This document shows, one piece after another, positions 2 through 26,945 of a DNA stretch of 35,730 nucleotides. The DNA is from Microbacterium sp. (GTDB lineage: Bacteria > Actinomycetota > Actinomycetes > Actinomycetales > Microbacteriaceae). Every line of letters begins with the position of its first letter. Position 1 is the first letter of the stretch. A model generated the notes under the pieces. That model did no database searches and was not told the DNA's origin. It saw only the letters and a program-made list of their open reading frames with translations. The position numbers and the translations under genes are program-made. Location: the NCBI GenBank assembly GCA_031178475.1, contig JAPSIX010000004.1, forward strand, positions 1 through 35,730, written 5' to 3'.

Positions 2-457
2 GCGATGCGCTACTCCGCCGTGCGCGCGGACGTCGACATGCTGGCCGCCGCGGTCGGCGAGGAGAACGTCGCCGTCGGTCTTCCCCTCGAGCACGAGGAG
101 CAGGTCGCGTTCGGTGTTCCCGGTGTGTTGTCGCTCACCGCGATCAACGAGAACGAGGAAGCCGCGCTCACGGTCGCGAACTACCTCGCCAGCCCCGAGG
201 TGTCGCACGAGCTGCAGAAGACTGCGGGCAACTTCCCCGCTCGTACCGACAGCCAGGCACCCGGCGACGACGAGTACACCCAGCTCTTCGCCGACGCACT
301 CGAGTTCGCGCGGTCCGAGACCATGCCGAACGCGGTGCAGATCCAGTCGGCGCTGAAGCCGCACCTGCAGGCCGCGCTGATGGGCAAGAAGACGGCCGAA
401 CAGGCACTGGCGGACGCAGCGGCCGAAGCACGGGAAACGATCAAGCGCGCAGGCTGA
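2..457 (+). CDS. Sugar ABC transporter substrate-binding protein, C-terminal part
   Basis: The reading frame is open from the left edge, so only the last ~151 residues are present. They match the C-terminal lobe of family-1 extracellular sugar-binding proteins: a stretch around VANYLASPEV and the phrase 'AGNFPARTDS' are typical of the hinge-distal helices where the cleft closes, and the end is helical and charged as in mature binding proteins. Two MalF/MalG-type permeases follow on the same strand, so this is the cluster's ligand-recognition component, anchored outside the membrane. The N-terminal lipobox lies outside the window. The ligand cannot be deduced; neighbouring amidohydrolase, aminotransferase and lyase genes suggest an amino or acylated sugar derivative. 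The family assignment is firm, the specificity unknown. Confidence 0.85.
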   Translation, partial: AMRYSAVRADVDMLAAAVGEENVAVGLPLEHEEQVAFGVPGVLSLTAINENEEAALTVANYLASPEVSHELQKTAGNFPARTDSQAPGDDEYTQLFADALEFARSETMPNAVQIQSALKPHLQAALMGKKTAEQALADAAAEARETIKRAG

Positions 458-595: not shown

Positions 596-1522
596 ATGAG
601 ATCAGCGGTGCTGAACGACCCCGCAACGGTGACGGATCGTCGGAAACCGTGGCATGCGCGTCTGCGCGAGCCGGCGGCCGGCCTGATCTTCCTCCTGCCG
701 ATGCTGGTCCTGTTCGTGATCTTCCGCTTCGTCCCCTCGCTCGGCGCGGTGGGGATGAGCGTCACCGACTACCAGCTGAGCGGCGAGTTCGACTTCGTCG
801 GATTCGAGAACTACACCCGGCTGTTCAGCGACCAGATCTTCCTCTCCAGCCTCTGGGCGTCCGTGCTCTACGCCGTGCTGTACGTGCCGATGGTGTTCCT
901 CGTCGGCATGACGACGGCACTGCTTCTGCACCACGTCGCCCGAGCCGGCGGATTCTTCCGCGGCGCTCTGTTCCTGCCGTACGTGACCTCGTCGGTGCTC
1001 GCGGCGATCCTCTGGCTCTGGGTCTTCGCCTCAGACGGCCTGATCAACGGCCTGCTCAGCCAGGCCGGGTTCGGCACCTTCCCCTTCCTGTCGGGGGATC
1101 AGATCACGGTGCTCGCGGCCATCGCCGTGGTCGCCACCTGGCGCGGGTTCGGCTACCCCATGCTCATCTTGCTCGCCGGGTTGAAGAACATCCCCGAGGA
1201 TCTCACCGAGGCCGCCATGATCGACGGGGCGGGACCGGTCCGGCGCTTCTTCTCGATCACCCTCCCACTGCTGCGTCCCGTCATCTTCTTCGTCATGGTG
1301 GTCGACACGATCGTCGCGTTCCAGGTCTTCGACCTGATCTACGTCATGACCGGCGGCGGGCCCGCCCGAGCCAGTCACACGCTCGTCTACATGCTCTACG
1401 AAGAGGGCTTCCAGTTCTTCGACTTCGGCTACGCCGCCACCATCGGCGTGGCGATCTTCCTGATCGTCCTCGTCATCTCCCTGATCCAGCGCGTCTTCCT
1501 CGACAAGGACAACAACGAATGA
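596..1522 (+). CDS. Sugar ABC transporter permease, MalF/UgpA type
   Basis: This 308-residue inner-membrane protein is one of two permease subunits of a carbohydrate importer. It shows a short charged N-terminus, about six hydrophobic helices starting near residue 28, and the EAA loop EAAMIDGAGP at residues 205-214 that docks on the ATPase. FVGFENYTRLF after the first helix and TGGGPARAS near the end are hallmarks of the MalF-like subfamily. The ATG was chosen over an upstream in-frame start because AAGGAGG lies about 10 bases before it and the upstream extension would run through the hairpin. Its stop overlaps the next permease start (ATGA). No ATPase gene is present; such importers commonly share a housekeeping MsmK/MsiK-type ATPase encoded elsewhere. 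Confidence 0.95.
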   Translation: MRSAVLNDPATVTDRRKPWHARLREPAAGLIFLLPMLVLFVIFRFVPSLGAVGMSVTDYQLSGEFDFVGFENYTRLFSDQIFLSSLWASVLYAVLYVPMVFLVGMTTALLLHHVARAGGFFRGALFLPYVTSSVLAAILWLWVFASDGLINGLLSQAGFGTFPFLSGDQITVLAAIAVVATWRGFGYPMLILLAGLKNIPEDLTEAAMIDGAGPVRRFFSITLPLLRPVIFFVMVVDTIVAFQVFDLIYVMTGGGPARASHTLVYMLYEEGFQFFDFGYAATIGVAIFLIVLVISLIQRVFLDKDNNE

Positions 1523-2402: not shown

Positions 2403-3128
2403 ATGCGCGTCGTCGACTGCCACCGGGTCATCGGCGCCGTGCCCATGGCCCGTGCTCCCGAGGATCCACTCGGGCTGCTCGCCGAGCTCGACCAGCTGGG
2501 CATCGACACCGCCGCGGTCACGCCGGCGTGGCAGCTGTATGGCGACCCGCGGGGGACGGAAGAGTACGTGGCCGCTCGCGGCGAATGGGCACACCACTCC
2601 CGCCTGATCGAGGTTCCGGTCGTGCTCCCCGGGCCTGCCGACACGCGCTTCCCCGCAGATCTTGACGACCTCGACGTCGGGCTCGTGCGGACATGTCCGG
2701 CGCGGCACCGGTTCGACCCGCTCGGACCTGCCGCTGTTCACTGGTGGAATCGGCTGGCGGAGCGGGGCACGGCGCTCGCCGTCGATGCCGGCGAGCTCGG
2801 CCTGGACGGCGTCGCCCGCCTCGCCCAGGCCGCACCGGCCCTCGACCTGCTCGTCCTCGGCCCTGGCTACCGCGAGCTGAGACGGCTGCGCGAGCTGCTG
2901 GATGCGCACCCGCGGATCCACGTGGAGACCGGCACGATCGTCTCCGCAGGAGGAGTGGAGTGGCTGGCCCGTGGGGTCGGCGCGCACCGGCTCGTGTTCG
3001 GCACCGGCGCGCCGCTGTGGGATGACGCCGGCCCCCGCTTCCAGCTCGACCACCTCGGTCTCCCCGCCGACGACGTCGCGCTCATCGCGCACGGCTCGTG
3101 GGACCGGCTCGTGAAGGTGGACGCATGA
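2403..3128 (+). CDS. Amidohydrolase-2-like protein with altered metal site
   Basis: This 241-residue TIM-barrel protein is related to the amidohydrolase 2 family. The first strand reads VVDCHRVIG (H7 only) where active members have DxHxHxG, and the late strand reads VFGTGAPLWD at 198-207 where the usual FGSD supplies a metal-binding Asp; here it is Gly202. GVEWLARGVGAHR before it is ordinary for the family. It starts two bases after the permease stop, with AGGGG about five bases upstream, and its stop overlaps the next amidohydrolase. The pairing of a degenerate and an intact member suggests a heterodimer partner, a regulatory subunit, or an enzyme with different metal use. Family membership is good; catalytic ability is doubtful and the substrate unknown. 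Confidence 0.75.
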   Translation: MRVVDCHRVIGAVPMARAPEDPLGLLAELDQLGIDTAAVTPAWQLYGDPRGTEEYVAARGEWAHHSRLIEVPVVLPGPADTRFPADLDDLDVGLVRTCPARHRFDPLGPAAVHWWNRLAERGTALAVDAGELGLDGVARLAQAAPALDLLVLGPGYRELRRLRELLDAHPRIHVETGTIVSAGGVEWLARGVGAHRLVFGTGAPLWDDAGPRFQLDHLGLPADDVALIAHGSWDRLVKVDA

Positions 3129-3880
3129 TCATCGACATCCACGGCCACGTCGGCACCTGGCCGGACTTCTTCATCCCCGAGCCGTCCGCGCAGTGGCTCG
3201 TCGAGACCAGCACGCGCATCGGGATCGACCTCACCGTCATCTCGCACCTGGTGGCGGTCGGACACGACACCATCACCGGCAACCGGATGGCACTGGCGGC
3301 TGCCCGGCAGTTCCCCGGCCGGCTCGGCGTCTGGCTGGTCGCCGACCCGCACCGGCCCGAACGCGCCGCCGACATCCGGGCCCAGCTCGACGAGCCGGGA
3401 GTGTGCGGTCTGAAACTGCATCCGGATGTGCACGAGTACGCCATCACCGATCCGGGATACCGTCCCTACCTCGAGCTCGCCGAGGAGAGCGGCGTCCCGA
3501 TTCTCTCGCACGGCCAGACCCGGTCGCCGTGGTCGGATCCCGCGCAGCTCGCCGAGGTCTGCCGGCGCCACGAGCGGCTGACGCTGCTGATGGGCCATTC
3601 CGGCCTCTGGGTGGACGGATTCGATCGGGCGATCGCGTTCGCCCAGGAGCATGCCGGACTGCACCTCGAGATCTGCGGCTCGCGTCTGACGCACCGCTGG
3701 GTGGTGCGTCTGGTGAGCGAGGCCGGCGCGCACAAGGTGCTGTTCGGCTCGGATGCCAGCTTCCTCGACCCGCGCGTCGGTCTCGGAAAGGTGCGCATGG
3801 CGCGGCTGACCGACGAAGAGCGCGCACTCGTGCTCGGCGGCAACGCCGCACGCATCCTGGGGGAGAGGTGGCGAGGATGA
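3125..3880 (+). CDS. Amidohydrolase 2 family metal-dependent hydrolase
   Basis: This 251-residue protein has the full metal-binding set of the amidohydrolase 2 family: IDIHGHVG with H6 and H8 on strand 1, GLKLHPD (K97, H99), LSHGQ (H129), MGHSG (H158) and FGSDAS with D210 on the last strand. Members cleave C-N or C-O bonds or decarboxylate, usually as cytoplasmic enzymes with a Zn or Mn ion. ATGA overlap couples it to the degenerate paralogue before it and to the aminotransferase after it, so all are made together. In context it probably opens a ring or lactone, or removes an acyl or carboxyl group from the imported compound. The reaction itself cannot be read from the sequence. Confidence 0.85.
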   Translation: MIIDIHGHVGTWPDFFIPEPSAQWLVETSTRIGIDLTVISHLVAVGHDTITGNRMALAAARQFPGRLGVWLVADPHRPERAADIRAQLDEPGVCGLKLHPDVHEYAITDPGYRPYLELAEESGVPILSHGQTRSPWSDPAQLAEVCRRHERLTLLMGHSGLWVDGFDRAIAFAQEHAGLHLEICGSRLTHRWVVRLVSEAGAHKVLFGSDASFLDPRVGLGKVRMARLTDEERALVLGGNAARILGERWRG

Positions 3881-5070
3881 GCGACCGGCTCGCGATCGAC
3901 GGCGGAACACCCGTGCACGACGGGCGCTGGCCCGCCTGGCCACCGCCCGCCGATGAGCGCCAGCGCGCCCTGCTGGCCGAGGTCCTCGACTCCGGGGCCT
4001 GGGGGGCGACATCCGGCCCGCTGTGCGACGAGCTCGCTGAACGCTTCGCGGCATCCCACGGCGCCCGACACGGCGTCACGCTGACCAACGGCACGCTGGC
4101 GCTCTTCGTCGCGCTGCAGTCCGCCGGCGTCGAACCGGGTGACGAGGTGATCGTCCCGGCCTACACCTTCGTCGCCTGCGCGACCTCGGTGCTGCTGCTG
4201 GGGGCGACCCCGGTGATCGCCGAGGTGGATCCGCAGCACCTGCACCTCAGCGCCGAGACCGTGCGCAGCGCGATCTCACCACGGACGCGCGCCGTGATGG
4301 TCGTGCACCTCGCCGGCAGCCCCGCACCGATGCGAGAGATCCTCGACGTCGCGAGCGAGCACGACCTGGTCGTCATCGAGGACTCCGCGCAAGCGCACGG
4401 CGCGCGCTACGACGACAGGCCGGTCGGCTCTCTGGGCACCGCCGCGACGTTCAGCTTTCAATCCAGCAAGGCGATGACGGCCGGTGAGGGCGGACTCATC
4501 CTCACCGACGACGCGGCGATCGCCGACCGGGCATGGTCGCTGTGCAACGTCGGCCGCGAGCGCGGCGGTCAGTGGTACGGGCACGCCCGCGTGGGATGGA
4601 ACCTGCGGATGACCGAGTTCCAGGCGGCGCTGCTGCTGCCATGGCTCGATCGGCTCGACGACGAGATCGCGCTGCGCGAATCCTTCGCCACCGCACTCGC
4701 TGCCCAGCTGCACGCGCAGGGCGGAGAGGTGGATGTCGTCGCCGACCCGCAGGGGACCACCAGAAACTCCCGGCACCTGCTCATCCTGCGCCTGCGTGGA
4801 CCCCGCGATCGCGACTGGGTCGCCGCGGCGCTCGAGGCCGAGGGGGTGCCGGTCGATCTCGGCTACCCCCATCTCGGGTCCATCGAGCCGGTCGCGGCGA
4901 AGTCGCGGGTCGTCGGCGACCCGGCCGACCGATACACCGATCTGCTCTGGCTGCGCCAGCCCATGCTCATGGCCGGGGAAGCCGGCGCTGTGAAGACCGC
5001 AGAAGCGCTGCACCGTGTGCTCGCCGATGCCCGCTCGCGCGATCGACTCGCGCAGGACGAGAGGTACTGA
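3877..5070 (+). CDS. DegT/DnrJ/EryC1/StrS-family PLP aminotransferase
   Basis: This 397-residue fold-type I PLP enzyme has LTNGTLALFVAL binding the cofactor phosphate, YTFVACATS, VIEDSAQAHGA with D169 contacting the PLP ring nitrogen, and FSFQSSKAMTAGEGG where K198 should form the internal aldimine. The N-terminal IDGGTPV and WPAWPP are typical of the sugar aminotransferase family, and GWNLRMTEFQAAL is the usual dimer-interface motif. Such enzymes normally aminate nucleotide keto-sugars or inososes with glutamate. Here no nucleotide-sugar gene is near and the operon begins with an importer, so I infer it works catabolically, removing or moving an amino group on an imported amino sugar or aminocyclitol. 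The start overlaps the previous stop by four bases. Confidence 0.9.
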   Translation: MSDRLAIDGGTPVHDGRWPAWPPPADERQRALLAEVLDSGAWGATSGPLCDELAERFAASHGARHGVTLTNGTLALFVALQSAGVEPGDEVIVPAYTFVACATSVLLLGATPVIAEVDPQHLHLSAETVRSAISPRTRAVMVVHLAGSPAPMREILDVASEHDLVVIEDSAQAHGARYDDRPVGSLGTAATFSFQSSKAMTAGEGGLILTDDAAIADRAWSLCNVGRERGGQWYGHARVGWNLRMTEFQAALLLPWLDRLDDEIALRESFATALAAQLHAQGGEVDVVADPQGTTRNSRHLLILRLRGPRDRDWVAAALEAEGVPVDLGYPHLGSIEPVAAKSRVVGDPADRYTDLLWLRQPMLMAGEAGAVKTAEALHRVLADARSRDRLAQDERY

Positions 5071-5071
5071 A

Positions 5072-6148
5072 GTGTCCGTCATCGTGAGTGCTCCCGCAGA
5101 CCCGAGCATCCTCAGCAGGTTCCGCCAGGGCGGCGTCATCCCCGCCCACCCGCTGGCGCTCACCGCCGACCGCCGGCTCGACGAGCGCCGGCAGCTGGCG
5201 CTGAGCCGCTACCAGATCGAAGCCGGCTCGCTCGGGTTGGCCGTCGCCGTGCACTCCACCCAGTTCGCCATCCACGACCGCCATCGCCACCTGCTCGAGC
5301 CGGTGCTCGCGCTCGCGGCCGAGGCGGCGGGCGAGTACCCCGACCGGGCGCCGCTGCTGATCGCCGGCGGCACCGGTCCGACCGCGCAGGCCGTCGCAGA
5401 GGCCGAGCTTGCGGCATCCCTCGGCTTCCACATGGTTCTGCTGTCGACCTACGGCGCCGGCCGGCTCAGCGAGGACGAGCTTCTCGAGCGGGCCAGGGAG
5501 GTGTCGCACGTGCTGCCCGTGATCGGTTTCTACCTGCAACGCGCCGTCGGCGGGCGGTACCTGTCGCGCTCGTTCTGGCAGCGGCTGGCGGAGCTGCCGA
5601 ACGTCGTCGGCATCAAGATCGCCCCCTTCGACCGGTACGCCACACTCGACGTTGTCCACGGGGTCGGGCTGTCGGGCCGCGCCGACGAGGTGGCGCTCTA
5701 CACCGGCAACGACGACACGATCGTGATCGACCTGCTCTCGTCGTTCGCCAGCAAGGACGAGCGGGGGCGGCCCCTGCGGCTGGAGATCGTCGGCGGGCTG
5801 CTCGGCCAGTGGGCCGTCTGGGTGCAGAACGCCGCCGAGATCATGCAGCTCGTCAAGCGCGCCAAGGCGGGGGATGCCGAGGCGATGACCACCCTGCTCG
5901 AGGTCAACCCGAAGCTCACCGACGCGAACGGGGTGATCTTCGACGCCGCAAACGACTTCGCCGGGTGCATCCCCGGCATCCACGAGGTGCTGCGACGCCA
6001 GGGGCTGCTGGAGGGGGTCTGGCTGCTCGACGAGGACGAGCGGCTGTCGCCGGGGCAGCTGGCCGAGATCGATCGGGTCTGGGACGCCTACCCCGAGCTT
6101 CGCGACGACGCGTTCGTCGCCGAGAACCTGGACCGCTGGCTGCGGTAG
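5072..6148 (+). CDS. DapA/NAL-family (dihydrodipicolinate synthase-like) lyase
   Basis: This 358-residue TIM barrel belongs to the class I aldolase family of DHDPS and N-acetylneuraminate lyase. GIKIAPFDRY carries the Schiff-base lysine K182, IGFYLQ the conserved Tyr154, and AVHSTQ (61-64) replaces the usual TTGE loop, so the substrate end of the pocket differs from true DapA. It is about 60 residues longer than DapA, mainly in a C-terminal helical tail. The GTG start was chosen because GAGAGG sits about seven bases upstream and the preceding gene ends two bases before it. A close paralogue is at 30922-31986. It probably cleaves or forms a 2-keto acid C-C bond as the last step of the operon's pathway. 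The family is sure, the reaction unknown. Confidence 0.85.
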   Translation: MSVIVSAPADPSILSRFRQGGVIPAHPLALTADRRLDERRQLALSRYQIEAGSLGLAVAVHSTQFAIHDRHRHLLEPVLALAAEAAGEYPDRAPLLIAGGTGPTAQAVAEAELAASLGFHMVLLSTYGAGRLSEDELLERAREVSHVLPVIGFYLQRAVGGRYLSRSFWQRLAELPNVVGIKIAPFDRYATLDVVHGVGLSGRADEVALYTGNDDTIVIDLLSSFASKDERGRPLRLEIVGGLLGQWAVWVQNAAEIMQLVKRAKAGDAEAMTTLLEVNPKLTDANGVIFDAANDFAGCIPGIHEVLRRQGLLEGVWLLDEDERLSPGQLAEIDRVWDAYPELRDDAFVAENLDRWLR

Positions 6149-6154: not shown

Positions 6155-7378
6155 TCAGAGGTTCAGCTTGTAGAGGGTGAGCGGGCGTCCGCTCGTGCCG
6201 GAGGGCTGCTGCCCGACCCGCTCGGCGTAACCGGCCAGCTCCAGTCGCTGCATCATCCGCCGCGCCGTGCGCTGCTCGATCGAGAGGGCGCCGGCGATGT
6301 CGCGGGTGGTGACGGCATCCGACCCGGCTGCCGCATCGCGCAGCTTCCGCACGGTCTGCGCCGAGAGCCCGACGCGCGCGGTGATCACGCCGATCCCGGC
6401 CTGCTCCAGCGGCGGGTCGTCGCTGGAGCGGTCGGTGTCGAGCACGATGTCGACGTCGTTGCGGAAGGATGCCGCGGCGGCGACGTCACCATGGCTGCGG
6501 GCGCGGGACAGCGCGCGCCGCGCGAGCGACTCCGCCTCGGCGGCGGTGCGGCCGAACCCGAATCCGATCTGCACGCGCTCCCGATCGGCCGCGAGCCGGC
6601 GCAGGATCGGCGCGGAGGTGAACTGCGCCGTGACGTCGGCGAGCGGTCCGCGCGTGGTGACGATCATGCCCCGGCCGTCGTCGACGCGACAGTACGTCCC
6701 CGCGATGCCGGCCGCCTCCCGCGCGAGGTCGCGCTCGAGTTCAGTGGTCCACGGCGACGCCTCGACGAGACCGAGCACGACATGGGCATCTTCGTTGGAC
6801 TGGTTGGACGCGAGCAGAAGCAGCTGGTGGAGGGTGGTGCGCACGGACTTCCACGAGGGGACCAGCCGCAGGACGGGGATCTCGCCGCGCAGCGCCTCGT
6901 ACACCGAGGCGACGCAGGTGATCGCCACCGACCCGTCGGCGGCGTGACGCCGATGGAAGTCGATCAGCGTCTGCGAGGTGACCCCGGCGCGGAAGGGCAG
7001 CGAGCGGATGCCGTCGGTGGGCAGATCCGACTCGGTCAGCACTGCCAGCACGTCGGAGGTGGCCAGGGTGTCGATCGACATCCGGGTGATGTCGGCCCCA
7101 TCCTTCAGCAGCTGCACGATCGCATGCAGCAGCGGGGTGCCGGTGTAGTCGATGTACAGGGCCGGGCGGTTGAGCCGATCAGCGGCGTAGGTGTACGGGA
7201 TGACGCCGGTGAACAGCCACGCGTCGACGTCGGCCGCGTGCGCGCCGACGATCTGCTCGGCCTCGGTCTCGTGTGAGTAGGGGTAGCGCCGGATGCGAAC
7301 GCCCGCGGTCCGGTCGCCCAGATCCGCGACGCTCCTGACCAGGTCGTGCGGTCCCACCACTCCGATGACCGTCGTCAT
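6155..7378 (-). CDS. Regulator: ligand domain, nucleotide-cyclase-like fold, winged helix
   Basis: This 407-residue protein is of uncertain family. The N-terminal ~150 residues (start TVIGVVGPHDLV) resemble a small-molecule-binding Rossmann-like domain. Near residue 270, GFGFGRTAAEAESLARRAL looks like the conserved turn-helix of GGDEF/PucR-type or GTP-cyclohydrolase III-type folds, without any visible catalytic GGDEF. The last ~70 residues (RDIAGALSIEQRTARRMM, then LAGYAERVG) form a winged helix-turn-helix. I infer a one-component transcription factor. It overlaps by ATGA the DapA-like gene upstream of it, and converges with the previous operon over six bases. Its best candidate targets are the 20-base motifs at 8375 and 9610. 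A cytoplasmic signalling role is less likely because of the DNA-binding end. Confidence 0.6.
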   Translation of the reverse strand: MTTVIGVVGPHDLVRSVADLGDRTAGVRIRRYPYSHETEAEQIVGAHAADVDAWLFTGVIPYTYAADRLNRPALYIDYTGTPLLHAIVQLLKDGADITRMSIDTLATSDVLAVLTESDLPTDGIRSLPFRAGVTSQTLIDFHRRHAADGSVAITCVASVYEALRGEIPVLRLVPSWKSVRTTLHQLLLLASNQSNEDAHVVLGLVEASPWTTELERDLAREAAGIAGTYCRVDDGRGMIVTTRGPLADVTAQFTSAPILRRLAADRERVQIGFGFGRTAAEAESLARRALSRARSHGDVAAAASFRNDVDIVLDTDRSSDDPPLEQAGIGVITARVGLSAQTVRKLRDAAAGSDAVTTRDIAGALSIEQRTARRMMQRLELAGYAERVGQQPSGTSGRPLTLYKLNL

Positions 7379-8307
7379 GCTCTCCGCCTCCCGCGCGTTG
7401 CAGAGCCTACCGCCCGCGCTGTGGCGAGCACACCTGCCCGCTCGTCATCGGAGAGGTCGGCGGGGCGCAGCGGATCCACCGCCATGTCGGCGGGCACCAG
7501 TCCTTCGTCGGCGGCGATCCACAGCATCCGCTGGACGTAACCGTCCCACGGCGGGCGGAAGGTGACCTCCGCCAGCGAATCGAGCGCTCGCGAGGCGTGC
7601 AGGAACGCGGTGGCGTCCCCGTCGCGGTGAGCCCGGACGACGGCGGCCGACGCTTCCACGCAGGCGGCGGTGATGCCGACGAGGGCGCCCTGCGCGCCCC
7701 ACATCAGCGACGGACCGAACATGCGGTCCTCTCCGGTCACGACGGTGCGACCGGCATCCGTCGCCAGCGCGATGCCCTCCTGACAGGCGACGGCGTCGCG
7801 CAGACGCGCCGGCTTGAACGCCGCGACCGCGGGATGCTGCAGCAGACGCCGGAGGTGATCGGCGGGGTAGGGGCGGGTGTAGAGGTCGAAGGCGATCAGG
7901 GGAAGCCCGGTCTGCTCCCACAGCTCATCGCACCGCGGCAGAGTCTGCTCCGGCCCGGAATCGCTCGCGCGGAAGAGGAGCAGGGCGTCCGCCCCGGCAT
8001 CCGCCGCGATGCGGGGCCAGGTTCGCGCGTCCTCGGTATCGGCGGCTTCGGTGACGCCCGTGACGACGAACGGGCTGACCTCGCGTGCGATCTCCACCAG
8101 CGTTCGCCGGGTGAGCGGATCCAGCAGGTCGCCGCGGCCGGTGTGCACCGCGACGGCCAGACCGTCGGCACCGCGCTCCATGAGGGCGGCGAAGTAGTCG
8201 CGCACGACGGTGAAGTCGATCTCGCCGGCGGCGTTCATCGGGGTCGCGGCGGCGGCGATGAGCTTTCCACGGAGCGCGTCGGCGCACCTCCGCGAGACCT
8301 CATGCAT
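7375..8307 (-). CDS. DapA/NAL-family lyase-like protein
   Basis: This 310-residue member of the DHDPS/N-acetylneuraminate lyase family has GKLIAAAATPMNAAGEIDF at the N-terminus, typical of the first strand, AVHTGRGD in place of the TTGE loop, FDLYTRP with the conserved tyrosine, and AAFKPARLRD with Schiff-base lysine K165. Length is normal for the family. It is only distantly related to the two longer paralogues in the window. Its stop overlaps the start of the regulator, so enzyme and regulator form a two-gene operon; the enzyme's substrate may also be the regulator's ligand. The ATG was chosen because a TATAGT hexamer ends seven bases upstream, which fits a leaderless mRNA. The reaction is unknown; cleavage or formation of a 2-keto acid is likely. 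Confidence 0.8.
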   Translation of the reverse strand: MHEVSRRCADALRGKLIAAAATPMNAAGEIDFTVVRDYFAALMERGADGLAVAVHTGRGDLLDPLTRRTLVEIAREVSPFVVTGVTEAADTEDARTWPRIAADAGADALLLFRASDSGPEQTLPRCDELWEQTGLPLIAFDLYTRPYPADHLRRLLQHPAVAAFKPARLRDAVACQEGIALATDAGRTVVTGEDRMFGPSLMWGAQGALVGITAACVEASAAVVRAHRDGDATAFLHASRALDSLAEVTFRPPWDGYVQRMLWIAADEGLVPADMAVDPLRPADLSDDERAGVLATARAVGSATRGRRRA

Positions 8308-9685: not shown

Positions 9686-12600
9686 ATGAACGTGGTCAAG
9701 AAGAAGCTCAGGGCCTACTTCGGCGCAGCACTCGCGCTGACGATGCTGCTGTCGACACTGTCGCTCACGAGCGCAGCCGTCGCGGAGGAGACCGCCGACC
9801 CGCCTCCCATCCGCTACATGTTCGCCAACTCGTTCAGCGGGCAGGCCGAGATCCGCGTCCTGGGCGACATCAACGCCGTGCCGATCACGCGCAAGCAGTC
9901 GTACGGCGCCAGCATCGGCGCGACGGCGATCGGCCAGTCCCGCTCGTTCGAGTTCGACGTAGCGGCGGCCGGGTACTACCTGATCTCGTTCCAGGGCTAC
10001 CGGTACTTCTCGTCAGGCATCGGCGACCTGATCATCGACGGCGAGACGATCGGCCAGTACGACTTCTACGACCCGGGCAGCACGTACGGGCCCGACATCG
10101 CGATCAAGACCATCGAGCTCTCCGCCGGCACCCACGAGCTGACGCTGCTCGTCTCCGGCCGCAACCCGTCGGCCACACAGCGGAGCAATTACTCGCTGTA
10201 CCCGACGGCGCTCACGCTGACGCCGCAGGCCTCCCTGGCCGAGCTCCAACTCACCGTCGACGCCAAGGAGCGGCTGCTCCTCGACGAGGTCGTGAACCTG
10301 CAGGCATCGTTGACGATGACCGACGGCACGGCCGTGAACGATCCGACCTACCAGTACGCGAGCAGCGACCCGGCGGTCGCCAGCGTCGACGCCGACGGGA
10401 ACGTCACCGCCCTCGCCGGTGGCACGACCACGGTCACGGTCACCGCGACGGGCAACGGGCAGACGCTCGTGAAGGAGGTGCCGATCGAGGTCATCGACGC
10501 GAGACTGTCGAGCGTCACCGTGACCATGGACACGGGCGAGCTGCTCTTCGGCGAGTCGGCGCAGCTCTCCGTCGCCGGCACCCTGTCCGACGGGACGGAA
10601 GCCGACCTGACCGGCGCCTCGACGGTGTTCGGGAGCAGCGACCCCGCCACCGTCCACGTCGACGAGGCGGGCAAGGTCACCGCCGTGCGCCCCGGCGAGG
10701 CCGACCTGACCGCCCGGGTCACCTTCGCGGGTGCGACGCTCGAAGACACGCTGCACGTGACGGTCTCCGACGAGATCGCGAACGCGAAGACCCGCAGCAC
10801 GATCTACACCGAGGAGCGCGTGGCTGCGGCCCGCGAGAACGTCAAGAGCTACGACTGGGCCAAGAGCCAGCGGGATGCCGCGGTGCAGAAAGCCGATCAG
10901 TACCTGCGCAACGGCATCGAGTTCCTGTGGAACATCGTCCCGCCGCAGACACTGCCGCGCAGTTACGCCGTGAACCAGCGGCTGGGCAGCCCGGTGACCG
11001 GAAGGGACATCGACGAGTACGGCAACTATCCGTACCAGGCCGACCCGTTCGCCAGGCCGTGGAAGATCGTCGATCCCAGCAGCGGCTACACCTTCCCGAC
11101 CAACGACTTCGCTTCGTTCTACGAGAGCGGCCTCGATGAGCACGGCATCTTCCAGCGCGAACTCGCCGACGAGCAGTACCTCGTGAACGAGCTGTACCCC
11201 GAGAAGGGACCGACCTGGGGCGTCGACGACGGCCTGGGGTGGGTGGATGCCGAGGGCAACCACTTCCCGTTCATCGCCTACTACGTGCACTGGTTCCTCT
11301 GGCACGGCACCGACAGCGTGATCTCGAACGCGAACGTCGCGCTGCGTGACGCCTACCTCTACACCGGCGACATGAAGTATGCACGCGCCGGCATCGCACT
11401 GCTGGACCGGATCGCCGACATCTACCCGTCACTGGACGTGTCGAAGTTCGACCAGACCGTGTTCCTCAATTCGCACGGCGGTCTGCAGACCGGCAAGGCT
11501 GTCGGATCGCAGTGGGAGGAGCTGCTGATCAGGGAGTTCATCCACTCGTACGACGCGTACTTCCCGGTGATGGACGACCCCGAGGTGGTCGCCTTCCTGA
11601 GCGCGAAGGCGGCGGAGCACCAACTGAACAACCCGAAGAACAGCGGCGACGCGATCCGCCGGAACGCCGAGGACGGGATCGTCCTGCAGGCGTACCCGGC
11701 GGTGCGGAACGCGCAGATCTACAGCTCGAACGGCAGGCACGCCAACGTCCTGACCCAGGCGGCCGTCGTGTACGACACCATGCCGCAGACGCAGGAGTGG
11801 CTGGACTTCGCGTTCCAGGCCGGTGGTCTCACACCCCCGCCGCGTCAGGTGCTCGGCGGTGACATCCTGGCGCGACTCGTCGACGTCGTCGACCGCGACG
11901 GTGCGCCGACCTCGGGTGCGCCCGAGTACAACCTGCTGTGGCTTGCCCGCTACATCCGCATGGCGGACACGCTGCAGGGCTACGACAAGTACCCGGCGGC
12001 CGATCTGTACGACAACGTCAAGTTCAAGAAGCTGTTCTCGAACATCTACCCGCTGATCCTCAGCGAGAACTACATCCCGACGTTCGGCGACTCGAAGAAG
12101 ACCGGCGACCCCGGGATCTTCGGCGTCAGCATGATCGACATGGTGAAGGCGTATCAGCGCTACCGCGAGCCGATCTTCGCGCAGATGGCCTACTTCCTGA
12201 ACGGCAACAAGCTGGACGGCATCAACGGCGGCATGTTCGCGACGAACACCAAGCAGCTCCTCAAGGACATCAAAAAGGTCATCAAGGAGCACGGCCCGCT
12301 CGACCTGCCGACCGACAACCTCGCCGGCTACGGGTTCGCCGCGCTTCGCGACGGCACCAGCGCCGAGAAGGCGAAGGACGACAGCACGATGCGCGACGTG
12401 TGGATGTACTACGGCCGCAACCACGGTCACGGGCACCGCGACACGCTGAACATCGGGATGCACGCCTTCGGTCTCGACCTCTCGCCCGACCTCGGCTACC
12501 CCGAGTTCGCCGACAACCAGAACATGAACCGCTTCCAGTGGGTGAGCAACACCATCAGCCACAACACGGTCGTCGTCGACGAGTCCAAGCAGCGGCCCCA

Positions 12601-13810
12601 GTTCGTCGCCCAACCGAAGCACTTCGACGACGGTGACCGCGTGGAGCTGCTCGACGTCGAAGCGCCCCAGGTGTACCCGCAGACCGAGCTCTACAAGCGC
12701 ACCACCGCGATGATCAAGGTCGACGAGGCGAACTCCTACTCGGTGGACTTCTTCCGGGTGAAGGGCGGCGAGAACCACCACTTCAGCTTCCACGGAGCCG
12801 AGGGGTCGGTCACGACCGACGGGCTTGACCTGGTCGCTCAGCCGACGGGCACGTACGCCGGACCGGACGTGGAGTTCGGGCAGCGGGTCGACAGCGTCGA
12901 GGGGCACCTCTACCAGGGCCACGGGTTCCACTGGCTGAAGAACGTCGAGCGCAGCGCCGACCCCGCCAGCGGATTCAGCGTCGACTGGAAGGTCGAGGAC
13001 ACCTGGGACGTCTACGGCAACGGGGCAGGAGCCGAGACCGACGTGCATCTGCGGCTGACGATGCTCGGCGACCTCGACGAAGTGGCGCTCGCCGACGGTG
13101 TTCCCCCGCAGAACAAGCCGGGCAACCCCGAGGCTCTGCGCTATCTCGTGGCCAAGCGCAGCGGGGCGAACCTCGACAGCGTGTTCACCTCTGTGATCGA
13201 ACCCTACAAGGGTGAGCGATACATCGAGTCCGTCGAGCAGGTGAGCGCGACCGTCGACGGCACCGAGGTGACCGGCACGGACGTGCGGGCGGTCAAGGTG
13301 ACCCTGGCAGACGGCCGGGTGGACTACATCGTCAACGCGATGCAGCCGGACGTCACGTACGTCATCGACGACACGTTCACCTTCCAGGGCTTCTTCGGGG
13401 TCTACTCCGAGAAGGACGGGGAGCAGGTGTACGGCTACGTCAACGAGGGAACCGTGATCGGTGATCTCGTCGAGGACGCGACGGCGTCGGTCACCGGCAG
13501 CGTCGTGGACTACACCAAGACGCTCAGCCTCGAGAACTCGATCACGGTGAAGCTGTCGCAGCCGATCGCCGACGCGGAGCGGCTGGTCGGGTCGTACATC
13601 TACGTCGAGACCGACGGCGAGCGCAACGGCGCGTACCGGATCAAGGGGATCGCGTCGCAGGACGGCGACACAGTCACCCTCGACATCGGCGACATCACGC
13701 TGATCCGCAGCTACATCAACCCGAGCGAGATGAGCCGCGGCTTCACCTACAACATCGCCGAGGGCGCCGGCTTCGTCATCCCGCTGGCGACGGAGGTGCA
13801 GGCGGAGTAG
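9686..13810 (+). CDS. Secreted heparinase II/III-family polysaccharide lyase, multidomain
   Basis: This 1374-residue exported enzyme has a signal peptide of ~33 residues (charged NVVKKKLR, hydrophobic core, AVA cleavage). A ~140-residue beta-sandwich, probably carbohydrate-binding, is followed by two Big2-like Ig domains at ~181-270 and ~274-361 (ASSDPAVASVDADGNVTAL and SSDPATVHVDEAGKVTAV). An alpha/alpha-toroid region spans ~365-760 and a heparinase II/III-like beta-sandwich follows from ~880. The histidine-rich run NHGHGHRD at 912-919 is the likely catalytic or metal-binding part. No LPXTG, S-layer repeat or transmembrane anchor is seen at the C-terminus, so release is likely. Members beta-eliminate uronic-acid polymers (heparin, alginate, ulvan, hyaluronan types); the substrate here is open. 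A GGAGGGA site precedes the ATG. Confidence 0.85.
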   Translation: MNVVKKKLRAYFGAALALTMLLSTLSLTSAAVAEETADPPPIRYMFANSFSGQAEIRVLGDINAVPITRKQSYGASIGATAIGQSRSFEFDVAAAGYYLISFQGYRYFSSGIGDLIIDGETIGQYDFYDPGSTYGPDIAIKTIELSAGTHELTLLVSGRNPSATQRSNYSLYPTALTLTPQASLAELQLTVDAKERLLLDEVVNLQASLTMTDGTAVNDPTYQYASSDPAVASVDADGNVTALAGGTTTVTVTATGNGQTLVKEVPIEVIDARLSSVTVTMDTGELLFGESAQLSVAGTLSDGTEADLTGASTVFGSSDPATVHVDEAGKVTAVRPGEADLTARVTFAGATLEDTLHVTVSDEIANAKTRSTIYTEERVAAARENVKSYDWAKSQRDAAVQKADQYLRNGIEFLWNIVPPQTLPRSYAVNQRLGSPVTGRDIDEYGNYPYQADPFARPWKIVDPSSGYTFPTNDFASFYESGLDEHGIFQRELADEQYLVNELYPEKGPTWGVDDGLGWVDAEGNHFPFIAYYVHWFLWHGTDSVISNANVALRDAYLYTGDMKYARAGIALLDRIADIYPSLDVSKFDQTVFLNSHGGLQTGKAVGSQWEELLIREFIHSYDAYFPVMDDPEVVAFLSAKAAEHQLNNPKNSGDAIRRNAEDGIVLQAYPAVRNAQIYSSNGRHANVLTQAAVVYDTMPQTQEWLDFAFQAGGLTPPPRQVLGGDILARLVDVVDRDGAPTSGAPEYNLLWLARYIRMADTLQGYDKYPAADLYDNVKFKKLFSNIYPLILSENYIPTFGDSKKTGDPGIFGVSMIDMVKAYQRYREPIFAQMAYFLNGNKLDGINGGMFATNTKQLLKDIKKVIKEHGPLDLPTDNLAGYGFAALRDGTSAEKAKDDSTMRDVWMYYGRNHGHGHRDTLNIGMHAFGLDLSPDLGYPEFADNQNMNRFQWVSNTISHNTVVVDESKQRPQFVAQPKHFDDGDRVELLDVEAPQVYPQTELYKRTTAMIKVDEANSYSVDFFRVKGGENHHFSFHGAEGSVTTDGLDLVAQPTGTYAGPDVEFGQRVDSVEGHLYQGHGFHWLKNVERSADPASGFSVDWKVEDTWDVYGNGAGAETDVHLRLTMLGDLDEVALADGVPPQNKPGNPEALRYLVAKRSGANLDSVFTSVIEPYKGERYIESVEQVSATVDGTEVTGTDVRAVKVTLADGRVDYIVNAMQPDVTYVIDDTFTFQGFFGVYSEKDGEQVYGYVNEGTVIGDLVEDATASVTGSVVDYTKTLSLENSITVKLSQPIADAERLVGSYIYVETDGERNGAYRIKGIASQDGDTVTLDIGDITLIRSYINPSEMSRGFTYNIAEGAGFVIPLATEVQAE

Positions 13811-13827
13811 AACCCTGTCGGCGTTCC

Positions 13828-13856
13828 GGGGTGGGCGGGCCGAGGCCCGTCACCCC
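13828..13856 (+). terminator. Hairpin after the lyase gene
   Basis: GGGGTG pairs with CACCCC and, inside, CGGG with CCCG, with small bulges, 17 bases after the lyase stop. It is GC-rich with no long T-run, as is common for high-GC actinobacteria. It separates the lyase from the phosphonate-type transporter operon. Confidence 0.6.
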
Positions 13857-23907: not shown

Positions 23908-24897
23908 TCACCACGCACGCTGCGCTCCGCCGTGGTCGGCGCTGTCCTGCGCGAGGAGAGCCACGCGCGTCGCGAGCAGGCTCTGCGCGGTCGTGATCTC
24001 GGGCTCGGCACCCGCGGCGATCGCGTCGAAGAAGTAGGCGGCGGGGCGTCGCCCGCGCGGCAGGGCCACCTGGTGGCGGGGGCGCTCGTGCGTCTCCACA
24101 GAGAGGGTGTCGTAGGCCCAGTCCAGTTCGGCGGTGCCAGCAGAGCCGGTCAGGCGCATCCGGTAGTGCCCGTGGACCGCCGCCGCCTGCGGCCCGAGCC
24201 AGCTCGCATCGATCGTCGCCGTGACGTCGCCGGCGCTCAGAAGCACGGCGACGTGGTCGTCGAAGTGGGGATGCTCGGCGTGCCGGGCGTTGCCCGTGAA
24301 TGCCGAGACGGTGCCGTGGGCCGCGCCGCTCAACGCCAGCACGAGGTCGATGTCGTGCACGGGCAGATCTCCGGCGATGCCTCCGTACGTCTCGCGACGC
24401 AGGAACCAGTCCGGCCGCGACGGGAGGTTGAGCTTGTGCGGGCCCGTGCTCGCGACGAGTGCCAGCTGCCCGAGCACGCCGTCGGCGAGCAGCGACCGCG
24501 CGGCGAGCGTGGCGGGATAGAACCGCTTCTCGAAGACGACCGAGACGTGCCGGCCGGTCTCGGAAGCGAGCCGCTCGATGCGATCGAGGTCGGTGAGCGT
24601 CGTGCACAGCGGCTTGTCGGCGATGACGTGCGCGCCGGCCGAGAGCGCAGCCGACACCGCATCGGCGCGTCGGCTGTAGACGCCGGCGACCAGCGCCACA
24701 TCGACCTCATGGGCATGCAGCAGTTCGGCAGGTTCGTCGTAGACGGGGGTGTCGCCGAGGCCGCGCAGATACTGGGCGCGCATCGCCGGGTCGCTCTCGG
24801 CGGCCGCGATCAGGGTGCAGTCCGGGCGGGCGGCTACCTCGTCGAGCGCATACGCCACATGCGGATGCGCGGCGCCGAGGATCGCGACGCGGATCAC
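23908..24897 (-). CDS. Gfo/Idh/MocA-family oxidoreductase (1)
   Basis: This 329-residue NAD(P)-dependent enzyme has an N-terminal Rossmann fold starting VAILGAAHPHVA. ADKPLCTT places the catalytic Lys95; in the second domain GDLPVHDIDL gives Asp177 and His181. The glycine motif is altered to GAAHPH instead of GxGxxG. The GTG start overlaps the stop of the next oxidoreductase (GTGA), so the two form one minus-strand operon under the operator at 25969. Family members oxidise or reduce sugars, inositols or sugar acids at a secondary alcohol. The presence of four such enzymes suggests a multi-step oxidation-reduction route. The specific substrate is unknown. Confidence 0.85.
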   Translation of the reverse strand: MIRVAILGAAHPHVAYALDEVAARPDCTLIAAAESDPAMRAQYLRGLGDTPVYDEPAELLHAHEVDVALVAGVYSRRADAVSAALSAGAHVIADKPLCTTLTDLDRIERLASETGRHVSVVFEKRFYPATLAARSLLADGVLGQLALVASTGPHKLNLPSRPDWFLRRETYGGIAGDLPVHDIDLVLALSGAAHGTVSAFTGNARHAEHPHFDDHVAVLLSAGDVTATIDASWLGPQAAAVHGHYRMRLTGSAGTAELDWAYDTLSVETHERPRHQVALPRGRRPAAYFFDAIAAGAEPEITTAQSLLATRVALLAQDSADHGGAQRAW

Positions 24898-25913
24898 GGA
24901 GCGTGTTCCGTGCTCACACGGCGGCCGGATTCGGCGGCGGCGTAGACGGCGCACAGCAGGCGCATCGTGCGGGCCGCCTCCACGGCGTCGACGGCGCTTC
25001 GCCGACCTTCGCGGACGGCCGCCACGACGTCCTCCCACGTCGCGATGTGCCCGTGCAGGCCGATCGCGGCGGGGTCGGCGGCTCCGCTCGCCGCTGTCCC
25101 GGCGGCCTCCGGCCGGGGCAGTTCGGGGAACTCCCACCGGGTGATCTCGCCCTGCCCGATCTCGACGACGCCGCGCGAGGTGTGCAGGGACAGCGTCGCC
25201 GGTGAGCCGGGCGGCGTCGCCGTGGACGTGCTGATCACACCGAGTGCGCCGCTCTCGAAGCGCACCGTCGCGACGGTCGTGTCCTCGGCGGACATGTCGT
25301 GACCAAGCGTGCCGTACTGGGCCGTGACGTCGGTGACCGTTCCGCACAGCCACTGCAGCAGGTCAATGTTGTGCACCCCCTGGTTCATCAGGGACCCTCC
25401 GGCGGGCATCCTCGAGCGCCAGGGGGAGGCCGCGTAGTACGCATCGTCGCGCAGCCAGTGCACGTGCGTCGTGGCGAGGCGCAGTTCGCCGAGGACGCCC
25501 TCCGCCAGCATCCGCTTCACGGCGACGACCTCGGGCTCGAACCGGCGCTGCGCGACCATCGCGATGACGACGCCGTTCTCGTCCTGCGCGCGCACCAGCC
25601 GGTCGGCGTCGGCCGTCGAGAGCGCGATCGGCTTCTCGACGACGGCGTGCTTGCCCGCCGCGGCCGCCCCGAGGGTGAGCGCGGCGTGCGTCTCCGATGG
25701 CGTGCAGACGGCGACGGCGTCGACGTCGCCTCGCGACAGGATGCCGTCCGGCGTGGTCTGCGTCGCTTCGGGCCAGCCGCATTCGGCCATCGTCGTCGTG
25801 GAACCTCCGCTGAAGGCGGTGACGCGCACTCCCGGGATGTTCCTCAGCGCTCGCGCGTGGGTGGTTCCGATGCTGCCCAGGCCCAAGATGCCTATGCGGA
25901 GGTCAGTCGTCAC
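24894..25913 (-). CDS. Gfo/Idh/MocA-family oxidoreductase (2)
   Basis: This 339-residue enzyme has an intact Rossmann motif (GILGLGSIGTTHA), VVEKPIALS with catalytic Lys94, and SLMNQGVHNIDLLQWL with His181 in the second domain. The family's usual Asp is Asn177, as in its close relative at 26945-27940. YYAASPWRSR before it is also shared with that protein, so the two are paralogues. The start is GTG with GGGAGA upstream. It is the first gene of a two-gene minus-strand operon; its promoter (TTGCAA, 18 bases, TACGCT) overlaps the LacI-type palindrome. It likely dehydrogenates a sugar or sugar-acid intermediate. Confidence 0.88.
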   Translation of the reverse strand: MTTDLRIGILGLGSIGTTHARALRNIPGVRVTAFSGGSTTTMAECGWPEATQTTPDGILSRGDVDAVAVCTPSETHAALTLGAAAAGKHAVVEKPIALSTADADRLVRAQDENGVVIAMVAQRRFEPEVVAVKRMLAEGVLGELRLATTHVHWLRDDAYYAASPWRSRMPAGGSLMNQGVHNIDLLQWLCGTVTDVTAQYGTLGHDMSAEDTTVATVRFESGALGVISTSTATPPGSPATLSLHTSRGVVEIGQGEITRWEFPELPRPEAAGTAASGAADPAAIGLHGHIATWEDVVAAVREGRRSAVDAVEAARTMRLLCAVYAAAESGRRVSTEHAP

Positions 25914-25943
25914 GGCGGATTCTCCCGTCTGCAGTTCCCTTCC

Positions 25944-26007
25944 AGCGTAGGGGTGGCGTCGAAGGAGTTGCAACCGATTGCAAGAATTGTTGGCCCCATG
26001 CCAGGAT
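25944..26007. promoter_or_regulatory. Divergent promoters sharing one LacI-type operator
   Basis: TGCAACCGATTGCA (25969-25982) sits in the middle. On the minus strand TTGCAA (25968-25973) and TACGCT (25944-25949) make a promoter with an 18-base spacer. On the plus strand TTGCAA (25978-25983) and CAGGAT (26002-26007) make a weaker one. Each TTGCAA is a palindrome half, so one bound repressor would close both. The 140 bases between the divergent genes hold nothing else evident. Confidence 0.7.
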
Positions 26008-26054
26008 GGTGGTGAGCGCCGCCGGGCGAAACGACAACGACGACGGGAACAGCA

Positions 26055-26945
26055 GTGACACGGATCGGCTTCATCGGAACCGAGAACTCGCACACCGACC
26101 ACTTCATCCGGTTCCTCAATCAGGAGGAACGACACCCCGGCTTCCGCGCCAGTGCGCTGGCCGGTGGCCGCAGCGAGAGGAACGCCGCGCTGGCAGAGGC
26201 GGGCGGGATCGAGGTCATCGTCGACGAGCCGACCGACCTGATCGGCCAGGTCGACGCGGTGATCATCTCCACCCGCGACGGCGCGCTGCACCGTGCGCAG
26301 GCCGAGCCGTTGCTCGCGGCGGGGATCCCGGTGCTCGTCGACAAGCCTCTCGCGACGACCGGCGACGATGCGGATGCGATCATCGCGGCCGCCGAGGCCG
26401 CCGGCACGGTGCTCTTCTCCGCGTCCGCGCTGAGGTTCCTCCCCGAGATCGAAGAGCTGCGGGCGACGGACGGCGCGCTCCGTCACCTGCACATCTCGGG
26501 TGCGGGCGACCCGGAGAGCGTGTACTCCGGGCTGTTCTTCTACGGCATCCATCACGTCGAGGCGGCGATGGAGATCCTCGGCGACCCGCCCGTCGCAGAT
26601 GCCCTCGAGGTGTCGGTGCGCCGCACCGGCGACACCACCGTGGCCACCGTGGAACTCGGCGGAACACCCGTGACGTTCACGTTCGTGGCCCCGGGGGAGG
26701 GCGCCCCGACTCCGTTCCACGCGACGGGCGTGTACGCGGGCGACGTCCGGGCGCGCACGCTCGCCCTCGACCCCGACTACAACGCGCCGGCTCTCGCGCG
26801 GTTCATCGGTGCGCTCGAGTCCGGGCAGTGGCCGGCGGATGCTGACAAGCTGCGCGACCCCATCCGCGTCCTCGCCGCGATCGTCGCGGCTCTTCCCCAG
26901 GCGGCGCTTCCCCAGGCGGCGCTTCCGCAGGCAGAGGAGAACTGA
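26055..26945 (+). CDS. Gfo/Idh/MocA-like oxidoreductase (3), divergent
   Basis: This 296-residue protein is the most divergent of the four. The N-terminus IGFIGTENSHTDHF replaces the glycine-rich motif, VLVDKPLA keeps Lys97, and FYGIHHVEAAMEIL keeps His166, while the usual Gly-rich loop before the His is missing. It is shorter than typical (about 330). The C-terminus carries ALPQA three times, encoded by a 15-base DNA repeat. The GTG start has only a weak ribosome site. Its stop shares one base with the next start (TGATG). It could be an oxidoreductase of different substrate, or a partner or binding protein; the catalytic lysine and histidine favour an enzyme. The substrate is unknown. Confidence 0.72.
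   Translation: MTRIGFIGTENSHTDHFIRFLNQEERHPGFRASALAGGRSERNAALAEAGGIEVIVDEPTDLIGQVDAVIISTRDGALHRAQAEPLLAAGIPVLVDKPLATTGDDADAIIAAAEAAGTVLFSASALRFLPEIEELRATDGALRHLHISGAGDPESVYSGLFFYGIHHVEAAMEILGDPPVADALEVSVRRTGDTTVATVELGGTPVTFTFVAPGEGAPTPFHATGVYAGDVRARTLALDPDYNAPALARFIGALESGQWPADADKLRDPIRVLAAIVAALPQAALPQAALPQAEEN
26889..26933 (+). repeat. 15-base tandem repeat in the 3' end of oxidoreductase 3
   Basis: Three units of GCGCTTCCCCAGGCG type (with one to three substitutions) encode ALPQA three times at the extreme C-terminus. A similar 15-base period occurs at the 3' end of nagB. This is probably slippage in a tail with no structural constraint. Confidence 0.85.

What the first reader, a model, noticed from the sequence alone, without database searches (positions are those of the whole stretch)
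2403..6148. Undescribed catabolic operon: importer, two amidohydrolases, StrS-type aminotransferase and DapA-like lyase
The four enzymes behind the sugar importer overlap or nearly touch, so they should act on one imported compound. The combination of amidohydrolase 2, a sugar-type PLP aminotransferase and a DHDPS-fold lyase does not match a catabolic pathway I know. A possible order is ring or acyl opening, removal of an amino group, then aldol cleavage of a 2-keto acid. An aminocyclitol or amino-sugar acid is a reasonable class of substrate. The importer and the absence of biosynthetic partners argue against an antibiotic pathway.
Basis: partly seen in the sequence, partly recalled or inferred. 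Interest (0 to 1): 0.7.

Follow-up and report, generated by a model that had tools for sequence, protein, structure and literature searches.

The report
Amino-sugar operon with paired amidohydrolases
A soil-type actinobacterium carries a conserved, probably sugar-degrading operon in which an intact hydrolase is always paired with a related copy that has lost its active-site metal ligands, and such pairs recur, sometimes fused into one protein, in other bacteria and in archaea; what they break down is not yet known.

Summary
Importer permeases, AH1, AH2, a StrS-type aminotransferase (AT) and a DHDPS-fold lyase (DHD1) overlap by 4 bp or lie 1-2 bp apart. The set recurs. In 394 genomes of the class, searched with AH1 alone, all 14 AH1-subfamily loci in 13 other genomes read AH1-AH2-AT, 12 with the permease directly upstream. 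Seven of the loci fetched with flanks, and a Nonomuraea locus, also carry DHD1 and the divergent regulator.

The reading changes in two ways. First, the "two amidohydrolases" are not two enzymes of one kind. AH2 keeps all five metal ligands (HHHHD) and AH1 keeps one at most. This intact-plus-degenerate pattern holds in 73 of 75 tandem pairs collected (both exceptions are technical), including Bathyarchaeota and haloarchaeal fusion proteins. AH1-AH2 is therefore most likely one heteromeric enzyme with a pseudoenzyme subunit. Second, the operon lies in a larger locus with a PL17-like lyase, NagA, NagB, four Gfo/Idh oxidoreductases and a second importer. A relative carries most of the same parts.

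Catabolism of an amino-sugar or amino-uronate component of a polysaccharide is the best reading. Substrate and reaction order remain unproven. I found no description of the operon or the pairing in the papers I could search.

The parts
5..457 (+). C-terminal part of the sugar ABC substrate-binding protein (gene enters from outside the window)
   Evidence: no Pfam hit alone; clusters with substrate-binding proteins at the same place in 15 other loci (family F2)
596..1522 (+). sugar ABC permease 1
   Evidence: PF00528
1519..2400 (+). sugar ABC permease 2
   Evidence: PF00528; UgpE/GlcU-like in NCBIfam, below cutoffs
2403..3128 (+). AH1: Amidohydro_2-fold protein without the metal site, probable pseudoenzyme subunit
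   Evidence: PF04909 26.6 bits; ligand columns H V D G G against HHHHD in AH2; TIM-barrel model, pLDDT 89, nearest folds are amidohydrolases/decarboxylases
3125..3880 (+). AH2: metal-dependent amidohydrolase, probable catalytic subunit
   Evidence: PF04909 112.5 bits; H6, H8, H129, H158, D210 kept
3877..5070 (+). AT: StrS/DegT-type PLP aminotransferase
   Evidence: PF01041 301.9 bits; PLP lysine in FSFQSSKAMTAGEGG aligns with the corresponding AHBA synthase lysine
5072..6148 (+). DHD1: DHDPS/NAL-fold Schiff-base lyase with altered active site
   Evidence: PF00701; model pLDDT 94, DHDPS folds at Z about 34; Lys182 invariant, Tyr133 equivalent aligns with invariant Phe153
6155..7378 (-). REG: probable transcriptional regulator (sensor plus C-terminal HTH)
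   Evidence: no Pfam hit itself; homologue in L030 has HTH domains; conserved near the cassette in 12 loci including the window (F3)
7375..8307 (-). DHD3: second DHDPS-family protein, ATGA-coupled upstream of REG
   Evidence: PF00701 52.9 bits; recurs in 11 related loci
9686..13810 (+). HEP: secreted heparinase II/III-type lyase with Big_2 domains
   Evidence: PF07940 and PF02368; nearest solved: PL17 alginate lyases, weak; homologues near AT in L039, L050 and L109
20639..23776 (-). second sugar importer (perm4, perm3, SBP2)
   Evidence: ORFs; homologous permeases and SBP in related loci
23908..27940 (.). four Gfo/Idh-type oxidoreductases (23908-24897 -, 24894-25913 -, 26055-26945 +, 26945-27940 +)
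   Evidence: ORF reading and homology; not scanned against Pfam individually
28978..30836 (-). NagA-like (28978-30009) and NagB-like (30006-30836) enzymes
   Evidence: Amidohydro_1 for NagA; NagB by reading of the translation; NagA/NagB with DHD1 in L109-L111
30922..31986 (+). DHD2: paralogue of DHD1
   Evidence: 55-57% identical to DHD1

Best explanation
This is one catabolic operon inside a polysaccharide-utilisation locus. A secreted uronate-type lyase and other enzymes release N-containing oligosaccharides and the ABC permeases import them. AH1 and AH2 form a heteromeric amidohydrolase: AH2 carries the metal site and catalyses, while AH1 is a metal-free pseudoenzyme that stabilises AH2, regulates it or completes its active site. 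The likely reaction is opening of a lactone or cyclic amide, or hydrolysis of an amide, on an oxidised sugar. AT then moves the amino group of an amino-sugar or amino-uronate intermediate to a 2-keto acid, using StrS-type chemistry in the degradative direction. DHD1 forms a Schiff base through Lys182 and cleaves or dehydrates the resulting 2-keto acid. Shown here: gene chain, recurrence, folds, PLP and Schiff-base lysines, loss of the metal ligands in AH1, and intact-plus-degenerate pairing with fusions. Inferred: heteromer formation, catabolic direction, substrate class and step order. My confidence by layer: one functional unit 0.95; AH1-AH2 as a heteromer 0.75; catabolic direction 0.8; amino-sugar or amino-uronate substrate 0.5; this step order 0.25.
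For: Co-function: AH1 retrieved independently of AT in 394 class genomes gave 14 loci in 13 other genomes, all AH1-AH2-AT, 12 with perm2 directly upstream. Seven fetched flanks (L178, L179, L180, L182, L187, L188, L190) also hold EPIM-DHD1 at 65-68% identity, REG and AT'; six of them show AH1' and AH2' too. Nonomuraea L123 is similar. The cassette AT clade is monophyletic at 100/100. Heteromer: 73 of 75 tandem pairs in 11 clusters at 40% identity are one intact plus one degenerate. One haloarchaeal protein fuses a degenerate and an intact domain, and a second fuses them in the reverse order. Precedent: the inactive dihydroorotase homologue of P. aeruginosa is needed for ATCase activity (PMC7053772). 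Catabolic amino sugar: NagA/NagB, Gfo/Idh, lyase and importers in the locus; relative L109 has HEP, AT, AT', GFO2, GFO1, DHD1, NagA and NagB within 19.5 kb; AT homologues sit with NagA, NagB and Gfo in Paenibacillus and Chloroflexi.
Against: No substrate, activity or complex is demonstrated. AT could equally run in the synthetic direction. AH1/AH2 contact was not modelled, because only single chains could be predicted. DHD1 is often found without AH1, AH2 or AT, beside an epimerase-family gene and a hydroxyacid dehydrogenase or NagA/NagB, so it is a module shared with other pathways. Streptomyces, Actinomadura and some Kribbella loci lack DHD1 in the stretch seen and carry DHD3, an MLE-type enolase and a luciferase-like monooxygenase instead. 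The lyase match to PL17 is weak.
Confidence: 0.5

Rival explanations
1. AH1 and AH2 are two separate enzymes acting one after the other; AH1 would use a metal-free mechanism.
For: AH1 keeps its own conserved residues (R96, P99, H102, G155, R160, GTG at 200-202), so it is under selection; both genes are complete.
Against: AH1 lacks four of five metal ligands in the window and keeps at most one in its relatives; the same asymmetry in 73 of 75 tandem pairs and the haloarchaeal fusions point to one complex. Single intact Amidohydro_2 proteins also exist, so pairing is a property of particular subfamilies.
Confidence: 0.15
2. The locus uses the oxidative uronate logic: dehydrogenation to a lactone, lactone handling by an amidohydrolase (Gli-like), an MR/MLE cycloisomerase (Gci-like) and a DHDPS-family dehydratase (KdgD-like), with AT handling an amino group on the uronate.
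For: PMC6353982 describes Udh, Gli (amidohydrolase superfamily), Gci and KdgD acting in that order. Relatives of the operon carry an epimerase-family gene, AH pair, MLE enzyme and DHDPS protein in various combinations, and L176/L185 has AH1-AH2-MLE.
Against: The window itself has no MLE or EPIM homologue; DHD1 gives no NCBIfam KdgD hit; the MLE of L030 is closest to muconate cycloisomerases; AH2 relatives are nearest the uncharacterised 3irs and 3cjp.
Confidence: 0.25
3. AT is biosynthetic: the operon makes or salvages an aminocyclitol or amino sugar (AHBA-, kanosamine- or scyllo-inosamine-like).
For: The nearest solved structures of AT include AHBA synthase and 2-deoxy-scyllo-inosose aminotransferases.
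Against: RifK is a long lone branch outside the cassette clade; no biosynthetic partner gene was recognised in the conserved families; importer, NagA/NagB and lyase accompany the set.
Confidence: 0.12

Closest known systems
AHBA synthase RifK / 2-deoxy-scyllo-inosose aminotransferase (StrS/DegT fold)
   Same: fold, PLP lysine and the FSFQ..K.MTAGEGG motif
   Different: about 205 bits only; separate clade; partners are importer, amidohydrolase pair and lyase instead of antibiotic genes
Oxidative uronate pathway Udh-Gli-Gci-KdgD
   Same: uses an amidohydrolase-superfamily enzyme on sugar acids (PMC6353982); KdgD is a DHDPS-family enzyme (general knowledge)
   Different: no aminotransferase and no pseudoenzyme partner is described there; the window lacks MLE and EPIM homologues
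P. aeruginosa ATCase / pseudo-dihydroorotase complex
   Same: an inactive amidohydrolase-superfamily chain required for partner activity (PMC7053772)
   Different: there the active partner is a transcarbamoylase; here the partner would be a homologous intact amidohydrolase
ACMSD and gamma-resorcylate decarboxylase group (Amidohydro_2)
   Same: TIM barrel of the same family with HxH, H, H, D ligands
   Different: AH2 is about 250 aa, shorter than these enzymes of about 330 aa; nearest profile hits are uncharacterised 3irs and 3cjp
DHDPS (DapA) and N-acetylneuraminate lyase
   Same: fold (Z about 34) and Schiff-base lysine
   Different: Tyr133 position is Phe, GTTGE-type loop replaced by H-T/S-T/G, about 60 extra residues

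Membership tests
CUT1-type sugar ABC importer | two BPD_transp_1 permeases with a substrate-binding protein | tested here: met
   PF00528 twice; SBP end at 5-457 by clustering; no ATPase gene seen for this importer
StrS/DegT aminotransferase (PF01041) | family profile and PLP lysine | tested here: met
   301.9 bits; lysine aligned with AHBA synthase
Nucleotide-sugar aminotransferase equivalogs (LegC, PseC, ArnB, WecE, DesI) | NCBIfam curated cutoffs | tested here: not met
   LegC 200 of 420, PseC 199 of 423, ArnB 190 of 631 bits and so on
AHBA synthase | groups with RifK and lies with AHBA genes | tested here: inconclusive
   best PDB match, but RifK is a long unresolved branch outside the cassette clade
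Amidohydro_2 metalloenzyme (AH2) | HxH, H, H, D metal ligands | tested here: met
   HHHHD
Amidohydro_2 metalloenzyme (AH1) | HxH, H, H, D metal ligands | tested here: not met
   H V D G G in the window; in relatives at most the first His is kept
DHDPS superfamily | TIM barrel with Schiff-base lysine | tested here: met
   K182 invariant; Z about 34
DapA (lysine biosynthesis) | catalytic Tyr133 and GTTGE motif; NCBIfam dapA model | tested here: not met
   Phe at the Tyr133 position and motif absent by sequence alignment; no NCBIfam hit for DHD1
Oxidative uronate pathway | uronate dehydrogenase, Gli, Gci and KdgD together | tested here: not met
   no MLE or EPIM homologue in the window; no KdgD hit for DHD1; Udh and Gli themselves were not searched for
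Pseudoenzyme-containing heteromer | physical complex, activity depending on the inactive chain | not testable with these tools
   only genomic support: pairing and fusions

The most novel reading that the evidence does not exclude
Binary amidohydrolases: a widespread, undescribed enzyme architecture in which an intact and a metal-less Amidohydro_2 chain form an obligate complex in carbohydrate pathways of bacteria and archaea. Here it is coupled to a StrS-fold aminotransferase that runs in the degradative direction in a new amino-sugar or amino-uronate pathway.
Probability: 0.35. Interest if true: 0.7.

Novelty: new variant of a known kind. Interest (0 to 1): 0.52.

Why it matters
StrS-type aminotransferases are known mainly from antibiotic and surface-sugar biosynthesis (general knowledge), so a conserved catabolic setting would widen their role and may expose a degradation route for unusual amino sugars. 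The intact-plus-degenerate amidohydrolase pairs, seen in actinobacteria, archaea and a Klebsiella plasmid and fused in haloarchaea, would mean that many proteins annotated simply as 'amidohydrolase family protein' are non-catalytic subunits. Single-gene assays of such genes would then fail or mislead.

Tried and rejected
(1) Literature searches for this gene combination and for tandem or inactive Amidohydro_2 partners returned nothing relevant; only open-licence full texts were searched. (2) NCBIfam gave no equivalog for AH1, AH2, DHD1, DHD2 or HEP. (3) A nucleotide-sugar role for AT was rejected on cutoffs and neighbours. (4) DHD1 as DapA was rejected on motif and profile. (5) That the set is a chance neighbourhood was rejected by independent AH1 retrieval. 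(6) Membership of the oxidative uronate pathway was considered and not met in the window, but kept as a rival for how it works. (7) Cassette B (AT', AH1', AH2') was looked for in the window's genome: no AT' was found and AH1-like hits were only the window pair and one on C205; the genome is about 77% complete, so absence is not firm. (9) AH1-AH2 contact could not be modelled, as only single chains are predicted.

Full report
OBSERVATION. The reported genes are present at the reported place. On the + strand the window reads perm1 596-1522, perm2 1519-2400, AH1 2403-3128, AH2 3125-3880, AT 3877-5070, DHD1 5072-6148. Junctions perm1/perm2, AH1/AH2 and AH2/AT are ATGA overlaps; perm2/AH1 are 2 bp apart and AT/DHD1 1 bp apart. 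On the other strand REG 6155-7378 and DHD3 7375-8307 share an ATGA overlap and converge on DHD1. Pfam assigns BPD_transp_1 to both permeases, Amidohydro_2 to AH1 (only just above cutoff) and AH2, DegT_DnrJ_EryC1 to AT and DHDPS to DHD1 and DHD3.

RECURRENCE. A scan of genome contigs with AT gave 80 loci. In Isoptericola, Actinomadura, Kribbella and Streptomyces the order AH1-AH2-AT is kept, usually preceded by a substrate-binding protein and two permeases. To avoid circularity I searched again with AH1 alone: 394 genomes of the class gave 14 AH1-subfamily loci in 13 genomes besides the window's own, all AH1-AH2-AT, 12 with perm2 directly upstream. Of the loci fetched with flanks, L178, L179, L180, L182, L187, L188 and L190 also hold EPIM-DHD1 (DHD1 65-68% identical), REG and AT', and six of them show AH1' and AH2' as well. 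A Nonomuraea locus (L123) holds a similar set. None of the other genomes of the same genus or family in those samples has AH1, so the operon is an accessory, probably horizontally acquired unit. DHD1 is less tightly bound: its homologues often sit elsewhere with an epimerase-family gene and a hydroxyacid dehydrogenase or NagA/NagB. In Streptomyces, Actinomadura and some Kribbella loci DHD3 is present instead, with an MLE-type enolase and a luciferase-like monooxygenase nearby.

THE AMIDOHYDROLASE PAIR. An alignment of AH1 and AH2 relatives shows that AH2 keeps H6, H8, H129, H158 and D210 while AH1 has H, V, D, G, G in those columns. AH1 is nevertheless conserved (mean column identity 57%, with its own invariant residues R96, P99, H102, R160 and the GTG at 200-202) and is predicted with good confidence as a TIM barrel of the same fold group. 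I then checked every tandem Amidohydro_2 pair in the collected loci: 73 of 75 non-identical pairs, in 11 clusters at 40% identity, have exactly one intact member. The one 'both intact' case is the junction between two fused haloarchaeal proteins; the one 'none intact' case (L142) is probably a truncated ORF. The pairs include Bathyarchaeota L076, a distant actinobacterial family with small draft genomes (among L130-L156) and a second pair on contig C205 of the window's own genome (L195). A Klebsiella pneumoniae plasmid PTS operon (L128) shows the same pattern with its two genes 2.5 kb apart, so it is not counted among the 75. In Halomontanus rarus one 541-aa protein carries a degenerate N-terminal and an intact C-terminal domain, and the neighbouring gene has the reverse order. 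Retrieval with AH1 favours finding degenerate partners. The complementary search with intact AH2 relatives also found pairs of the same kind, and in addition solitary intact proteins, so pairing is a property of subfamilies and not of all Amidohydro_2. Loss of ligands with conserved pairing and fusion is best explained by a heteromer with a non-catalytic chain; an inactive amidohydrolase-superfamily chain needed for partner activity is known from P. aeruginosa ATCase (PMC7053772). The physical complex itself is inferred.

AMINOTRANSFERASE. AT keeps the PLP lysine in FSFQSSKAMTAGEGG; the best solved matches are AHBA synthase, perosamine synthetase and 2-deoxy-scyllo-inosose aminotransferases. 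It stays far under the cutoffs of all nucleotide-sugar equivalogs. In a tree of 68 sequences the cassette AT clade is monophyletic (100/100), AT' forms another clade, and AT/AT' also co-occur without amidohydrolases in Paenibacillaceae and in f14 genomes. Two archaeal ATs that also neighbour AH pairs group together. RifK is a long branch, so its placement is unsure.

LYASE. DHD1 is modelled at pLDDT 94 and matches DHDPS structures at Z about 34. Lys182 is invariant. The position of catalytic Tyr133 aligns with an invariant Phe153 and the GTTGE-type loop is replaced by H61-T/S-T/G. Schiff-base chemistry is therefore likely, with a different acid-base arrangement; whether it is an aldolase or a dehydratase is open.

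WIDER LOCUS AND MECHANISM. The same 35 kb holds a secreted heparinase II/III-type lyase with weak similarity to PL17 alginate lyases, esterases, a second importer, four Gfo/Idh-type oxidoreductases, NagA, NagB, a DHD1 paralogue (DHD2) and a mannitol/fructuronate-type dehydrogenase. Locus L109 of a same-order genome carries HEP, AT', AT, GFO2, GFO1, EPIM, DHD1, NagA and NagB within 19.5 kb, so the wider association is also conserved. I therefore favour degradation of an amino-sugar or amino-uronate component of a polysaccharide: import, oxidation, hydrolysis or ring opening by AH1-AH2, deamination by AT, and cleavage or dehydration by DHD1. The chemical logic resembles the oxidative uronate pathway, where an amidohydrolase-superfamily lactone isomerase acts on sugar acids (PMC6353982), but the window fails its membership test and that pathway has no aminotransferase. 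Step order and substrate are inference.

NOVELTY. I found no description of this operon or of intact-plus-degenerate Amidohydro_2 pairs in the open literature I could search; subscription papers were not searched, so this is not proof of novelty. The parts are known families; the combination and the pairing rule appear to be a new variant.

Noticed in passing
G000 contigs C300 (L113) and C205 (L195): The end of C300 and the start of C205 share 127 identical bases; read together they give a DUF6923-like propeller protein, hydroxyacid dehydrogenase, DHD2-like protein, epimerase-family protein, two permeases and an SBP. C205:6309-7856 holds another intact-plus-degenerate amidohydrolase pair.
   Followed up: partly
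L128 (Klebsiella pneumoniae plasmid CP067510.1), 10001-13918: A PTS operon with an intact and a degenerate Amidohydro_2 gene flanking IIB/IIC/IID genes, next to an ADP-ribosylglycohydrolase-family gene and a GntR regulator.
   Followed up: partly
L124 (Halomontanus rarus plasmid), 11134-14521: Two adjacent genes, each a fusion of an intact and a degenerate amidohydrolase domain in opposite orders, near an MLE-family enzyme and a StrS-type aminotransferase.
   Followed up: partly
window 13919-17317: A phosphonate-type ABC importer (PhnD/C/E-like) followed by a tyrosine-phosphatase-family gene, four overlapping genes inside the sugar locus.
   Followed up: no
L029-L031, L049, L064 and others (family F4): Secreted DUF6923/PQQ-type propeller proteins recur beside the operon (11 loci, 17 copies); function unknown, possibly the polysaccharide-degrading or binding part.
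   Followed up: no
L036 11205-12968 (family F3): A 588-aa protein without any Pfam hit belongs to a family found near AT-family genes in 18 loci, mostly Bacillota.
   Followed up: no
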